From: Saksenaea vasiformis B4078
Lineage: Eukaryota > Mucoromycota > Mucoromycetes > Mucorales > Saksenaeaceae
Assembly (NCBI GenBank): GCA_000697055.1
Contig: JNDT01002356.1
Span: 186,001-250,000, forward strand
DNA: 64,000 nt
Reading direction: 5' to 3'
Shown here: in pieces, positions 53,661-60,206 of the stretch
Layout of the letters: each line of letters starts with the position of its first letter
How positions within the stretch are numbered: the first letter of the stretch is position 1
Program-made: the position numbers and the translations under genes
The notes under the pieces: model-generated
The model's database searches: none
Seen by the model: only the letters and a program-made list of their open reading frames with translations
What the model was told of the DNA's origin: nothing

Positions 53661-53896
53661 GGGTTCCGCTACACGCACCCCACCGGGCGCACCCCAATGA
53701 CGTCAGTACAGATAGCAGAAGAATTTTGTTTCTGCTTACCGTACGAAAACCCGTGCCTAACAGGAGGCTAGATGACAGCTCTTTAACTGTCTGTGAGAAC
53801 TTGTTCTTGCACTGTTTGTGGTGGCCGTGATGGCCTCTGAAGCGCTGCTGGACGAGAGTCAATGTTACATCCAGATCGAATGTACGCCTCCAGTAT
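53661..53896 (-). ncRNA. candidate position of Fanzor guide RNA (fRNA)
   Basis: In Fanzor and TnpB loci the guide RNA is usually made from the 3' end of the gene and its downstream flank, ending near the element boundary. Here that interval lies between the Fanzor stop and the candidate left inverted repeat. No structure was computed, so only the position is proposed. Confidence 0.2.
53698..53705. promoter_or_regulatory. CRE-type palindrome TGACGTCA in VRG4 promoter
   Basis: A perfect 8-bp palindrome 154 bp before the VRG4 start codon, inside the 240 bp that also hold the 3' end of the Fanzor locus. bZIP factors of the ATF/CREB class bind this sequence. Regulation of VRG4 is inferred from position only. 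Confidence 0.45.
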
Positions 53897-56800
53897 TCAT
53901 CGCATGTTTTTTCCAGCATTCACGTCTCGATTCCACACCTGTTGGGACTATGAGAAGACATTCTATAATATATTGAGAACCTACAAGTTGGCGTTCTCCA
54001 TTGGTATCCGAAAGGCAATGTTGGCACATCCGTACCGGATACAATATTGACTGCCACGATTGCAAACCTATCGTCAAGTTAGTACATGATACAATTTCAG
54101 GCTAAGTTGATAGTATCGTAAGTTGTTCTTGCGGGACATACTGAAGAATAGCAGAGCACATTATTCTCATTGTCCACGCAACGTTGTCTTCTTCGTTTAT
54201 CAGTTGCAATTCGTAGGTATTTTTTTCTATCAATTTCATGAGCGTCAGATGAACACGTACTGAAGACCATGTATACGAACTTGTGTCTACACCTCTGCCT
54301 GGCCTGACGAACTTCGACCGTCTCATTGTCGCATATACTGCACACTTTGCTTGTTCGGTATTCGTCAATACAGACAACTAGTGCCTTTTGGGACAGTATT
54401 TGGCGGAAACCCTAAGGATGCGATTTAGCAACAGCATGTTTAGATTTGTACATACCTTGATTGGTAAGGGCGCCTGGCCATGCATCGGCCGTAAATCTGC
54501 GTCGCCAAACGCTACTATCGCCGGCCTAGTATCTTGTTGCTCGAACGCTCTAATCCACTGTCTTTCTCTCTTGCGCACTCTTTTCTTATCCTTATGTACC
54601 CATTGCAATGGCTATACCAATTGTTACAAACTATGCCACAGCCTTTCATGACCTTACAATGTCTGCCGCTCCGTATTTCCCAATTAATTTGTCTGCGATA
54701 CAATGTAGTGCCATCTTCCGTTGAGCAGCAAGGCGCTCCCGAGTCTCTCTGTGGCGATAGCTAGAATTGAGCTCTTTTATTCTATTTCCATATATTATTA
54801 GCTTGAACAAAATTACAGCCGCTTAAGTACCTGCACGATTCTTGACTCAGCGTTCTGACATAAGCTGCAAACTCTGGTAAACTGCCAACTTTGGGTGGGG
54901 TGTCACTCAGCCGCGTGTACACATCTTGGATCTCTGCATCCTCTCTGTTCCGAAGTTCTTGTTGCCTGGCCCATGCAAACATCGACGCCACCCTAGATTG
55001 GTACATCATTAGGTTTAGAGATACAAACAGTATCTACCACTACTGATAGTGCCTATTGGTAACGGAGTATATATGTTCACGTCTGGTCTCAGGATCGGCT
55101 AGATCGGAATCAACGGCTGTGATTATAGATCGTATACCTAATTGATCAACTAGACGTAAACCATCCTATCTATGTCTTGAGATTTTTAATCATACCGGGA
55201 TCAACACCAACAATCCGATGTGTCTCGAGCGTTTCTGGAGTCCAGCCGACGGGTTCCTTTCTCAGATGATATATGCCACTGCTTTGGTTGGAAACGTCCA
55301 CGTTCCGCGAAAGGAAGTTAAACTCTTTTCTGGATGATGGCGTTGGCACTATAAGATGATAAAATACCAAAGAATGAGCAAACATGGAACAAAAGGAGCT
55401 GTATTGTATATGATGATACATACTTCTGGGAATTGTATTGACAAATCCAATGCTGACTGACACACCATCCGTCTGCAAGCTGTATATAAACTTGATCTGG
55501 GCGGCCCATGAAACTATTGCGTCTGGTTAATACACAAGAGTCATTCCAGGAACTAGCATACCGTCTGGACCATCAGCATAGCGCCTGAAATGCTTCTGCA
55601 CTTTTGAGAAGTCGAAGATTGCTTCCCATACTTGTTCCTTCCAAAGCTTGTTATCTCGGCAGCGACGCATGAATTCGGTCTGCGGTATGACCGTTCGCCG
55701 CGGACGCATTTCGTATCGTCTTTGTACAGATGTCTAAACAACGATATTGAGCATGGTGAAGAACTATACGCAATATCTATATAGTTACCATTAGCTGCTC
55801 TGGCACGGGCATTCCTTTCCTTTCCGCTTCTACTATGAATTTATGGAATATAATGTTGTTAAAGGGGAAGAAAGCTATATGCAACGTTAAATACACGTTA
55901 AACAGTTTCACTGCATAATCTACCGGTCTGATGTTTTGCCATTGGAAGTAATGTCCAACGTTTCCCGTCCAGTTCCACCGTCCTTTGAAGCATCCAATGC
56001 ATGTACTGTACAATGTTGGCAGCTGCAATCGGATTCAGTTCTTCTTCGTCTTCTCCTAGTTCCAGCTGGGCGATATATCGTTGGTACCCCTCAAGACTTT
56101 CGCTGCGATATCAGTGAATTAATACATGTTTTGCAAATGCAATCCTTACGTGTATAGTATCTCTAGGTCAACCCGACGTGGGCACCATTCCCAGTCTTCT
56201 GGAATGAAAGGGTCATCACGGAAGATGCTTGCAATCATGTTATCCGCTAAGGAAAGATATGAGTCGCTGCTTCATTTAAAACCAGTTCTAACCAAGCTGC
56301 CGGTAAGTTTGTGGCAAGCTGATATTATCATCCGACGCCACATCTTGCCAGAAGGCAATCCACAATCTTCGCAGGTATTTCGGCCAGTTCTCCTTCAGAT
56401 GGCGCTTGGTTGCTGGAAATGGTATTGTTTTCGTGAGTATGTTTAGTTCTCATCTGCAAATTCAATTACCTGTGGCCATCTGTGTAGCAAATGTACCGCT
56501 GGCTCCCTTGAAAAGCGATGTGAGTTCCGGAGGGACATAGACTGTCAACCATAGCAGGTTAGAAACCGGTCAAGAAAAAAGGGATATGTTACATACACCG
56601 GGCACGAGCTGGCACGAAGTCATTAACATAGGTATCCGCTAGATCTCTTTGCCAATCCGCTCTAAACGTCCGCAGCTATACAAAACAGTTACAGACCCCA
56701 AGAAACTCAGTCAAGAACTTACAAGAGAGACTTGATCGCTTTCAGATAGTGTGCCCGCCATGTGAAAGCATCGACTCCAAAAAGATGATTCTGTTATGGG

Positions 56801-57063
56801 CGGACAACCAGAAAAGTGGTGCTGAGTTTCTACCCAACGCAGAAGATGCATGTTTGCTAAGTTTGCAGCATCTCTTCTTAATATTGTGTATTGTTCTGCC
56901 AATGTACGAAATAGATACTATATTAATTGTTAGTTACTTGATATGACATTGGCATACGTACTCTGTAATCTTTGTACGGTTCCCGAAGTAACGTAGACAG
57001 TTTGCACTGTCTCGTTACCGAAAATTGACTTATTTCCCGAAAAGAGACACCCCGTTCCGCCAT
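53897..57063 (-). CDS. Fanzor (eukaryotic TnpB-family RNA-guided endonuclease), possibly truncated by a nonsense codon
   Basis: Eighteen exons join in frame to 714 residues: 57063-56962, 56917-56723, 56675-56597, 56541-56470, 56412-56293, 56246-56150, 56102-55924, 55874-55789, 55733-55562, 55522-55424, 55348-55196, 55137-55044, 54992-54831, 54760-54658, 54611-54456, 54411-54261, 54067-53985 and 53938-53897. The C-terminal RuvC nuclease is complete: Ruv[20 protein letters not shown] with Asp450, Ruv[19 protein letters not shown] with Glu640, and Ruv[16 protein letters not shown] with Asp706. Zinc-ribbon pairs CSIC (647-650) and CQHC (688-691) sit between. [16 protein letters not shown] and [10 protein letters not shown] are also typical. 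Fanzors cut DNA guided by an RNA made next to the gene. TGA 53897-53899 directly follows NMR, and the frame then stays open to 53783, so it may be a new stop. The large intron count suggests long residence in the host genome. Confidence 0.88.
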
Positions 57064-58172
57064 TGCGGCGGTGTAGGCGGTCAAAAAAAAAGGTAGGAAA
57101 GAAAAAAAAAAGATGAAGAGAAGAAAAATCTGTTATGCAGCAGTGGAGAAGTAAACGATGGGATAAAAAACTGTTTCTCATGGTTGGGTGTATTTATCAG
57201 TGGCGCACAATGAAAAGCGGGATCTGAAAACTATTTGATTCATTGTCCCCACTTTGATTTCTCTTCGTTTTTCTCAATGGACATGCTTGAATGAGCACCG
57301 CTTGATATCAACGGCAAACATCCTTCAAATGACCTTTCTGAAAGAAACGAATACTCGTTATTACAAACGTTTATATTATTAGACATCGCCGGTCATTTCC
57401 ATCGACTGTGTCCTTCGAAAACACAAGGATGCTTGGAAGCTGCATATTTGTTTGGAGAATAGTTTCGTGTCTACAAGACTTTTGAATACCTTCAAAAACC
57501 CTTACTTTATATTCTAGTCGTTTGTTGCTCATGCTGGGCCCAACGAATGTGGAGTGACCTTTTGAGGTGGCTCCCAATAAAATGGAACCAGACAACAACA
57601 GCTGCAAATACCTTCAACTACGCCATTTTGAAGGTAAAGGGTGCGCCAGTGCGGTGCGCGCAGAAAAACCCAGAACTATGAACAGGACGGTGATGTCTTC
57701 AGATCATTTCTTTTTATAGATCTTTGATGGTGAGCACTGAGAGAAAACAAAGATGGAGAATCGGGTAAATCATACATATATTGTACTTACTTGGTAGAAA
57801 GAGCCATAATGAAAAGGAACAATAAAAAATTTTCTACACCAACAATAATGATTACTGAGTTGGTTCTAGGTGTCAACTACATTGGATGATGACTGCATTA
57901 TCAATGGTGATCTCTACCTCTTTAGATATTACAACTAGCGTACGTCAGATAGTGTGTCATGAATCTTAATGCAATATGGGACGTTCCTATACTAGACGCT
58001 GTTCAATACAGAAGCGTTCAGTTTTGCACACAATAACAGAATAATATACGTACAATAGGACGTTACTGAACAAAATCAGGTTCATATTCACATAGAGTAT
58101 TATTCGGCATCACAGTGAAACAGAAAATGACATAAATGCATTAAAAAAGTGTGGCATAATCGAACAACAGAT
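57064..58172. other. 5' flank of Fanzor and gene-poor spacer
   Basis: Presumed Fanzor promoter followed by A/T-rich DNA. It contains a perfect 8-bp hairpin (ACCTTCAA..TTGAAGGT, 57610-57635) close to the candidate right inverted repeat. A minus-strand frame at 57371-57607 has no recognisable domain. Confidence 0.45.
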
Positions 58173-58318
58173 TTCTTAGGAGCCATACCTAATCCGACCC
58201 GCAGTTTTTTGGAGCCATACGTTGCACAACCGCACACCCACCGAAACTACCCTAAACCTTATTGATCTCCGAGCCGGGAATTTGGTATGGCTCCAATTTT
58301 TGGTATGGCTCCTAAGAA
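58173..58318. mobile_element. 146-bp MITE with perfect 17-bp terminal inverted repeats
   Basis: The left end TTCTTAGGAGCCATACC (58173-58189) and right end GGTATGGCTCCTAAGAA (58302-58318) are exact reverse complements. A second, inner GGAGCCATA...GGTATGGCTCC pair nests inside (about 58217-58294). There is no coding capacity. Two diverged relatives lie at 3954-4070 and 16939-17030. This is a miniature inverted-repeat transposable element; the transposase family that moves it is not identifiable here. Confidence 0.9.
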
Positions 58319-60206
58319 AAAGGATCGAACAAACGAGCATTTTGACACGCTCTATGGCAAAGCGGATAGATGGAGACCGCTCCACATGAACATGAGGCTT
58401 GAACACAACGTGGCTATAATGCGAAGATAAGGCGCATCACATATCTGCGTCTAGTCCCAATGAACGATAGAAGAACAGTATGTTGTCAAAGGCGGATCCG
58501 CGAAATTTGACGCAACTTTCTTTGTCATACTTTGGCACTCAGTTGGATATTGAACTACCGTACTTTTCTCGTAACGACTGTAAAGCGATTGCAAGAATAG
58601 CTTTTTTAGCAAGCTTTGACCGCATTATCTGGAGTGCGCGTAGCAAATCTATCAAGCTGCGTCATTCCTGGGGGTCGATTATCGGCGTTAATAATTCCTA
58701 CACCGATACGTCATCTACCGCCCACTACTTTTTTTCATTGGTATGTTCATGTCCACATGCGATTTATGTTTCCATCATGGTCGTCATGTCATTTGCATAG
58801 GATATGGTGTTTTCTCCCTTTGATAAGATAACAAAAAGGACGTAGAAGAATAAAGCATTTGGTATAAACTTAAACCATCCCTTCTTAAGGAATACTGCAG
58901 CCACACAGTACAAGTTATGATGGAATGCCCTATTGCCTACATTTCTAACTATGTATGAGACTATAGAAAAGGTCTGGAACCAAGTATCTCATTTCTGCTG
59001 CTTGCATGAAGATACATTCGCAAAAGATATTAGGGAACATCCCCTCAAAAGTAGATCTATAATAGAGGGACAACAGTACAGAATAGTGTGTTTATTGAAG
59101 AAAAATGATACGCAGATTAGGATTCTATTTGTTCTATACTGCTCGAAGCCGCCCCTGAATTCACGGAGAAATTCACGTCTCGTTTACAATGAATAAAACC
59201 TTAGAACAGGTATCCATCGATGAGCACACTCTTTTCTGCAAAGAGGACACGAACATGGAACGGGCGATCCGGAAGTCCCTTGGATAATGTTTTACACAGG
59301 CAAACAACTTTTCTCGCCCATCTGGTGGTACAAATGGGACGGAGATCGACAAGATTACATCATTTGTCATGCAGAACCTTTCATAATGCTTCCCATCTTT
59401 CTGCCAAGGCTACAAGTACCCACTTCGCCGTCGGAAATTACTTTCTCCACACTCAGAGGAATCGGACGGAGTACGTGGCTTGGACCACAGATAACTGATT
59501 TTTGTGTAATAAAGGCGTCTTTTTTTGGGAAAAAAAAAGAAAAAAGAAAAAGAGATAGTAATCGTGCTCTTTGCTCCTCATGCCTCGTCACTTCATCACT
59601 TGTTATAGAAATTGTTCTATTACCGGGAGAGAAGTACGGCATTGAAATCTGTACGTGTCAGCAAAACGTTGCTCATCCAGTGGCGTTCGTCGTGCATTAA
59701 AATGAAACTGTTGTGCAGGGGTTCCGTGGAGTAAATGACATTTGCCTTGAAGAATGGAAGGCTTCAGGGAGATACTCTCCACAGCATTTTTAGTCGCCAA
59801 TGAGATGGCTTGCATTTTCCCTTTACAAAGGGTTCACCATCATAGAGAAACCATTGAACTTAACTCTGTTTGTTTGTAACCAACAATTGCATTGCTTAAA
59901 CAAATCCTATCGCGCTGCAGTCTAGATAAAGCATTGAGACTGATTTATGACATAACGGGTATAACGATGGCACAAGTATGCAATGATTCTGGTAACGTTC
60001 ATATCGCTTCAATAGATGCAAGTTTGTAAGGGATATGTTTCAATCAATGGTAGCGGATAGTGATGTCTTCTAGAAGGGGACCCCTGGTGTCGATCTTCCA
60101 TGCCGGGACAATATTTAGCCGGATAGGTTAGGTTTCGTTTTCAGAAACCACCGCCTGCCCGTCCGCCTGAACAGGATCTTCCCTTCCCTTTCTCTCCATT
60201 GATTTC
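58319..60206. other. gene-poor region with decayed coding fragments
   Basis: Holds the possible LINE remnant at 58480-58800 and short minus-strand frames (for example 59603-59815, 70 codons) without recognised domains. An A-rich run lies near 59530. No intact gene is seen before the metallopeptidase start at 60207. Confidence 0.5.
58480..58800 (+). pseudogene. possible LINE remnant (zf-RVT-like C-terminal domain)
   Basis: A 106-codon frame reads ELPYFSRNDCKAIARIAF, then a spacer, then AHYFFSLVCSCPHAIYV. The order (Leu-Pro..aromatic-Arg-Asn start, helical middle, HFFF..C.CPH end) resembles the zinc-binding domain at the end of non-LTR retrotransposon reverse transcriptases. The upstream Cys pair and the reverse transcriptase itself are absent. 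It is judged by eye from pattern only and may be chance. Confidence 0.25.

What the first reader, a model, noticed from the sequence alone, without database searches (positions are those of the whole stretch)
53897..57063. Intron-rich Fanzor with a complete RuvC active site
An 18-exon minus-strand gene reconstructs to a 714-codon frame with RuvC-I Asp450 (GVDPG), RuvC-II Glu640 ([14 protein letters not shown]), RuvC-III Asp706 (WNRDVNA) and two zinc-ribbon CxxC pairs. This is the signature of Fanzor, the eukaryotic RNA-guided nuclease family related to TnpB. Every splice phase agrees, which is strong evidence that the model is right. Seventeen introns suggest it has lived in the fungal genome for a long time.
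Basis: partly seen in the sequence, partly recalled or inferred. Interest (0 to 1): 0.9.

Follow-up and report, generated by a model that had tools for sequence, protein, structure and literature searches.

The report
Decaying fungal Fanzor in a transposon
This is an intron-rich gene for a Fanzor-type RNA-guided DNA-cutting protein carried by a mobile element in a fungus; the kind is known, and this copy appears to have lost a splice site and its protein tail, so it is probably no longer fully working.

Summary
The gene is real and Fanzor-like, but not "complete". The minus strand carries 19 exons (not 18). Two distant fungal proteins, aligned with introns allowed, together place 13 of the first 15 introns exactly and far outscore resampled DNA. 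D450 (DPG), E647 (six residues before CxxC, the Fanzor-type displaced glutamate), zinc-ribbon cysteines and WNRD are encoded. Pfam TNB matches only below cut-off; the family profile matches a Fanzor-like ORF of the same genome at 94.7%, E 6e-8. The gene lies in a repeated element with terminal inverted repeats, about 53661-58672. Against relatives, this copy has lost the 5' splice site of intron 17 (GT in 6 of 6 other copies readable there) and has a TGA just after RuvC-III where 6 of 8 copies have a sense codon, cutting 38 residues. Intron positions are shared with diverged subfamilies, so they date the family, not this insertion. Extra: a bounded 396-site block (late exon 2 to exon 4) differs from the C626 copy at 32% of sites against 5% outside, a recombination tract.

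The parts
53661..58672 (-). Repeated mobile element carrying the gene (limits of DNA similarity to the C626 copy; 5' limit near 58672 set by eye, 3' limit 53661)
   Evidence: blastn and end alignments; the 3' end matches 12 places of the genome, some only in part
53661..53695 (+). 3' terminal inverted repeat (18-base core 53661-53678); the same sequence in inverse orientation starts the 5' end of the C506 relative
   Evidence: core found 24 times with up to 1 mismatch (6 exact), 0 for the reversed control pattern
58631..58649 (-). Degenerate remnant of the 5' terminal inverted repeat, compared by eye with C506
53897..57063 (-). Fanzor-like gene, 19 exons: 57063-56962, 56917-56723, 56675-56597, 56541-56470, 56412-56293, 56246-56150, 56102-55924, 55874-55789, 55733-55562, 55522-55424, 55348-55196, 55137-55044, 54992-54831, 54781-54658, 54611-54456, 54411-54281, 54226-(54142 cryptic / 54117 in relatives), (54101 or 54050 cryptic / 54067 in relatives)-53985, 53938-53897
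   Evidence: 13 of the first 15 introns placed identically by P0001 or P0002; introns 16-18 rest on other copies and paralogs
55196..55348 (-). Exon 11 with RuvC-I aspartate D450 (GVDPG)
54281..54411 (-). Exon 16 with displaced RuvC-II glutamate E647 (E-x6-CxxC) and first zinc knuckle CSIC
54068..54116 (-). Intron 17 as in relatives (49 bp); donor dinucleotide lost in the window copy only
   Evidence: with this intron the frame of C409 and C62 is open from exon 13 on
53985..54050 (-). Part of exon 18 with the second zinc knuckle CQHC
53897..53938 (-). Exon 19 with RuvC-III WNRD, ending in a TGA (53899-53897) that is a sense codon in 6 of 8 copies
53783..53896 (-). Former coding tail of 38 residues, open to the stop that ends the frame in C409 and C62
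56450..56847 (-). Mosaic block (late exon 2 to exon 4, introns 2-3, start of intron 4): 125 of 396 sites differ from the C626 copy, against 180 of 3623 outside

Best explanation
A Fanzor1-type gene of Mucorales fungi, carried by a DNA transposon with terminal inverted repeats and no detected transposase of its own, now in an early stage of decay. The family protein (789 aa by the relatives' exon limits) would bind a guide RNA made from the 3' end of the element and cut DNA with a RuvC domain using D450, the displaced glutamate E647 and the WNRD aspartate. This copy still encodes those residues, but it has lost the donor of the intron between the two zinc knuckles and stops 38 residues early. 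If that intron is retained the frame ends before RuvC-III; a cryptically spliced product could keep RuvC-III but still lacks the tail. Shown: exon structure, motifs, repeated element, the two lesions. Inferred: RNA guidance, cutting, loss of function, Mucorales host (from the two homologues). Not seen: the guide RNA, any transcript, or the fold.
For: Independent spliced alignments of P0001 (35% identity over 96% of a 674-residue query that lacked the last exons) and P0002. The motif D-X199-TS-XX-C4-X13-RD fits the published Fanzor/TnpB pattern; DPG and E six residues before CxxC fit the published Fanzor hallmarks. TNB Pfam 18.8 bits (below the 26.3 cut-off) and OrfB_IS605 11.3 bits (cut-off 30.5); TNB in 4 of 7 family rows, best 4.9e-5. 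Profile link to the L003 ORF, which matches TNB at 56.8 bits and TnpB- and Cas12-type solved chains weakly, best E 0.0012, none named Fanzor. Element. Lesions; of 18 loci given to, 9 of this family show the WNRD-type motif and all 9 read on past the position of the stop. Past selection on the protein: dN/dS 0.37 to C626 outside the mosaic block (32 silent, 41 replacement changes), 0.19 to C596 over 177 codons.
Against: No above-threshold Pfam hit for the window protein and no solved structure found by sequence (partial protein) or family profile. NCBIfam: TnpB in 1 of 7 rows at 0.0072, while an unrelated family (MbnC) scored better in 1 row, 4.8e-4. No usable structure model (mean pLDDT 32.7 and 31.3). 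Two GT-AG cryptic readings around intron 17 keep the frame and both CxxC pairs, so some protein with all three catalytic residues could still be made. dN/dS against C118 is 2.5 on 9 changes, and 0.3 and 0.6 against C409 and C62 on 12 and 18, too few to judge. RNA folding of the 3' end is only weakly better than shuffled (z -1.74, 10 of 200 shuffles as good). No target-site duplication was found. Sequencing error at the two lesions cannot be excluded.
Confidence: 0.84

Rival explanations
1. The copy is still active: a cryptic GTATGT donor 25 bases upstream (with the acceptor at 54102 or 54051) gives a 754- or 737-residue protein with all three catalytic residues, and the 38-residue tail is dispensable.
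For: Both readings are open and in phase; exons 1-16 have no stop or frame break.
Against: The cryptic donor is also present, inside the coding sequence, in the 6 other copies readable there, so it is not a site made for this purpose; the donor loss is seen in no other copy and the stop in one (C118). In SpuFz1 a residue of the C-terminal loop, R631, lies in the groove of bound DNA (PMC11423790, passage of a figure legend), so a tail may matter.
Confidence: 0.12
2. The gene has been domesticated by the fungus and serves a host function.
For: Purifying selection in the history of the coding sequence; the element ends about 116 bp upstream of what looks by eye like the start codon of a gene on the same strand.
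Against: Closely similar copies elsewhere in the genome, element ends still recognisable, two lesions in this copy.
Confidence: 0.03
3. Not Fanzor: an unrelated protein with chance motifs.
For: Only sub-threshold domain hits; no match to solved chains.
Against: Hallmark residues in the published order and spacing. In the family alignment DPG is kept in 6 of 6 rows that reach it, DEY before the zinc knuckle in 5 of 5, WNRD in 3 of 4 (the C363 row has WNRH). hhalign E 6e-8 to the L003 ORF.
Confidence: 0.02

Closest known systems
Mucorales Fanzor1 elements ROr-4, PBl-3, MCi-4 (Bao and Jurka 2013, PMC3627910)
   Same: Fanzor1 proteins from Mucorales fungi, in elements with terminal inverted repeats that do not encode a transposase (passages read)
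   Different: Those have MuDr-like repeats and 9-bp target duplications; here no target duplication was found and the superfamily is not assigned. Their sequences were not compared here.
SpuFz1 of Spizellomyces punctatus (PMC10432273, PMC11423790; passages read)
   Same: Fanzor1 in an element with inverted repeats; D-E-D RuvC site (D383, E541, D606 there)
   Different: The family profile matches no solved chain at E up to 10
Fennellomyces sp. T-0311 hypothetical protein BJV82DRAFT_676465 (P0001)
   Same: 35% identity over 96% of the 674-residue query; same DPG and DEYRTSKVC motifs
   Different: The deposited protein ends after the first zinc knuckle; it has no family name in the record shown
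Rhizopus microsporus hypothetical protein RMATCC62417_09663 (P0002)
   Same: Family member by profile, E 2e-104; places 10 introns of the window model
   Different: The deposited protein ends before the displaced glutamate

Membership tests
Fanzor | RuvC-I D in a DPG motif | tested here: met
   GVDPG, D450; hallmark from PMC10711439, passage
Fanzor | RuvC-II glutamate displaced to six residues before the first CxxC | tested here: met
   [12 protein letters not shown]647
Fanzor | D-X(125,275)-[TS]-[TS]-X-X-[C4 zinc finger]-X(5,50)-RD | tested here: met
   D450, 199 residues, TS, KV, CSIC...CQHC, 13 residues, RD in both cryptic-splice models; pattern from PMC3627910, passage
Fanzor | TNB/OrfB zinc-ribbon profile match | tested here: inconclusive
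   18.8 and 15.9 bits against a cut-off of 26.3; 4 of 7 family rows match at E up to 1, best 4.9e-5
Fanzor | Profile similarity to recognised Fanzor/TnpB proteins | tested here: met
   hhalign 94.7%, E 6.2e-8 to the L003 ORF (TNB 56.8 bits), over 89 columns of the RuvC-II/zinc/RuvC-III part only; no match to a named Fanzor was obtained
Fanzor | RuvC and WED/REC fold | tested here: inconclusive
   Two predictions of P0001 failed, mean pLDDT 32.7 and 31.3
Fanzor | Guide RNA from the 3' end of the element | tested here: inconclusive
   Folding z -1.74 only; no RNA data
Fanzor | RNA-guided DNA cutting | not testable with these tools
   needs an assay
Fanzor1-type TIR transposon | Terminal inverted repeats and repeated copies | tested here: met
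   the 5' repeat of this copy is degenerate, and the inverse pairing is seen by comparison with C506
Fanzor1-type TIR transposon | Target-site duplication (9 bp in the MuDr-like Mucorales elements) | tested here: inconclusive
   No direct repeat of 7-11 bp at the window copy's ends; for four other ends no partner in the stretch held
Functional Fanzor gene copy | All family splice sites and the full-length frame kept | tested here: not met
   Donor of intron 17 lost; TGA 38 residues early

The most novel reading that the evidence does not exclude
Fanzor copies in this genome exchange a discrete N-terminal cassette (about residues 58-150, in the part where Fanzors carry WED/REC and read the target-adjacent motif) by recombination between diverged subfamilies, which would give an element new target-motif specificity while keeping its nuclease half and its 3' end.
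Probability: 0.15. Interest if true: 0.6.

Novelty: new member of a known kind. Interest (0 to 1): 0.36.

Why it matters
It adds a Mucorales Fanzor subfamily whose window member falls below the standard domain cut-offs, in a genome with at least 137 TNB-like places. It shows that an exon chain with all catalytic residues can still be a decayed transposon copy, which here only comparison with other copies revealed. The mosaic block, if such exchange is common, would bear on how Fanzors change target specificity.

Tried and rejected
Structure prediction of P0001 alone and with P0002 gave unusable models, so no fold search was made. Three protein database searches gave only P0001 and P0002 (in only the roughly 8000 candidates sharing most words were scored). 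Source of the mosaic block: 6 matches, all in C626, C506 and the window's own gene, so no donor found; C506 as outgroup does not say which copy is the recombinant. Selection on the protein alone as the cause of the block was rejected because introns inside it differ too (27 of 121 sites; exons 98 of 275). Target-site duplications: none found. Guide-RNA structure: weak. The C596 row was translated at a wrong offset and is not used. Pfam on the neighbouring Fanzor-like fragment L031:2864-3466 gave no family; its reading as Fanzor rests on motifs by eye. The 2023 Fanzor survey by Jiang et al. is recalled, not read; I recall that it treats introns in Fanzors. Literature searches: Fanzor with intron (36 papers, 20 listed), with transposon or Mucoromycota (142, 20 listed), with introns or a survey title phrase (29, 15 listed), with gene conversion (5, 4 listed), with Mucorales, Lichtheimia or Rhizopus (1,825 with any two terms, 5 listed, none with Fanzor). 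Only listings were seen, and passages of PMC3627910, PMC10432273, PMC10711439 and PMC11423790; I claim no absence from print on this basis.

Full report
What was checked. The window is G000:C624:186001-250000 of an unnamed 38.7-Mb assembly; that it is a fungus of the Mucorales is inferred from the two homologues. On the minus strand between 57063 and 53897 I placed exons by splice-site consensus and phase. The result is 19 exons with introns of 39-75 bp (91 bp in one alternative for intron 17), all GT-AG and in phase if cryptic sites are used for intron 17. D450 sits in GVDPG, E647 in [12 protein letters not shown], then CQHC and WNRD.

Is it more than chance? Among the roughly 8000 best candidates from 5.8 billion proteins the only match was a Fennellomyces hypothetical protein, P0001, 35% identical over 96% of a 674-residue query that lacked the last exons. 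A family profile added a Rhizopus microsporus protein, P0002. A spliced aligner that was not told my exons scored P0001 at 613 against this DNA, with at most 56 in 30 resampled sequences, and P0002 at 408 with at most 50 in 20. Each placed 10 of its 15 introns exactly as in my model; together they cover 13 of my first 15. The other 5 of each differ, and the P0001 alignment took one frameshift and two stops in poorly matching stretches. Neither deposited protein reaches the last exons, so introns 16-18 rest on other copies and paralogs in the same genome.

Is it a Fanzor? The published pattern D-X(125,275)-[TS]-[TS]-X-X-C4-X(5,50)-RD (PMC3627910, passages) and the two hallmarks DPG and a glutamate six residues before the zinc finger (PMC10711439, passages) are met. 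Domain libraries are weaker: TNB 18.8 bits against a cut-off of 26.3, OrfB_IS605 11.3 against 30.5. The NCBIfam TnpB model matches 1 of 7 family rows at 0.0072, while an unrelated model (MbnC) matches 1 row at 4.8e-4. No solved chain matches the partial protein meaningfully (best E 0.11, unrelated) or the profile. The seven-row family profile matches an ORF of another family in the same genome at 94.7%, E 6.2e-8, over 89 columns from RuvC-II to RuvC-III. That ORF has TNB at 56.8 bits and weak matches to TnpB- and Cas12-type chains. I therefore file it as Fanzor-like, with the fold untested.

What carries it. DNA similarity to a second copy at C626 runs from 58674 to 53688, with gaps, and end alignments set the limits near 58672 and 53661. 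The 3' end matches 12 places of the genome, this one included, some only over the last 35-60 bases; the 5' end matches only the window, C626 and C506. The last 35 or so bases appear in inverse orientation at the 5' end of the C506 relative, which makes them a terminal inverted repeat; the 18-base core occurs 24 times with up to one mismatch, and 0 times for the reversed control. The 5' repeat of the window copy is degenerate. No target duplication was found. Between 57000 and 59000 the longest frame is 109 aa, so no transposase was detected; a spliced one was not searched for. Bao and Jurka describe Fanzor1 elements of Rhizopus, Phycomyces and Mucor with inverted repeats and no transposase, and predicted multi-exon element genes.

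Is this copy intact? No. In 6 of 6 other copies readable at that place (C409, C62, C651, C596, C118, and C626 up to its insert) intron 17 begins with GT; the window has AT. In window coordinates this intron is 54116-54068, and with it the frames of C409 and C62 are open from exon 13 to a stop at 53783. Second, the window's TGA at 53899-53897 is CGA in C626, C409, C62 and C651 and CAA in C596 and C552; only C118 shares the TGA. C409, C62 and C651 share one junction and are not independent. Of 18 loci given to, 9 of this family show the WNRD-type motif and all 9 read on. The stop removes 38 residues. In SpuFz1 a residue of the C-terminal loop lies in the groove of bound DNA (PMC11423790, passage), so loss of the tail may matter. 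The other copies I read are no better: C626 holds a Tc1/mariner-like insert, a deletion over the second zinc knuckle, a frameshift and lost splice sites; C409, C62 and C651 begin at 55069, joined to another Fanzor-like gene; C596, C118 and C552 match only from the 3' part, and C651, C118 and C552 are also cut by contig ends.

Age and selection. All 13 paralogous loci aligned share several intron positions and phases with the window: 8 of 9 in C506, 13 of 18 in C363:79500-86000, 12 of 18 in C624:20500-27000, lowest 7 of 18 in C606 and 5 of 10 in C360 (same phase, within one residue). Several of these alignments needed frameshifts (0 to 6). The query was my model, so the protein side is not independent, but the aligner was not told the introns. 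The introns thus predate the split of subfamilies. Coding changes between the window and C626 outside the mosaic block are 32 silent and 41 replacement (dN/dS 0.37), and 0.19 to C596; C118 gives 2.5 on 9 changes. The family was under purifying selection; that this copy still is, is not shown.

A mosaic block. Between window and C626 a changepoint scan finds 56847-56450 with 125 of 396 sites different, against 180 of 3623 outside (Fisher p about 1e-52, for a block chosen by the scan). Introns inside the block differ too (27 of 121), so this is tract replacement rather than selection on the protein. No donor was found in the assembly, and C506 does not tell which copy changed. The block encodes part of the N-terminal region; that this is WED/REC here is inferred from other Fanzors, where WED and REC read the target-adjacent motif. 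One such tract is shown; cassette exchange as a habit is conjecture.

Verdict.

Noticed in passing
whole genome G000: At least 137 TNB (TnpB zinc-ribbon) places at E up to 0.001, with only 150 of 388 candidates scored: a Fanzor-rich genome with several diverged families; the window's own gene is not in that list.
   Followed up: partly
L030 (C409), L031 (C651), L032 (C62), junction at window 55069: Three copies, 99% identical to each other, join the 3' part of this gene to another Fanzor-like gene (CAIDPG; WNRDVNASKN), apparently nested or fused elements.
   Followed up: partly
L029:5583-6854: An insert with a 370-codon open frame sits inside the C626 Fanzor copy; Tc1/mariner-like by eye, not by a profile.
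   Followed up: partly
window 53544 downwards, minus strand: A gene on the same strand seems to start about 116 bp beyond the element's 3' end; by eye it resembles a GDP-mannose transporter (recalled), but Pfam with one exon gave nothing above cut-off.
   Followed up: partly
window 58650-58672: About 22 bp outside the 5' repeat remnant are shared with the C626 copy although the flanks beyond differ; unexplained.
   Followed up: no
window 55043-55038: The donor of intron 12 reads GTAGTG where C626, C409, C62 and C651 have GTAAGT; possibly a further weakening of splicing.
   Followed up: no
window 58172-58319: Several short inverted repeats around GGAGCCATACC within the element's 5' part.
   Followed up: no
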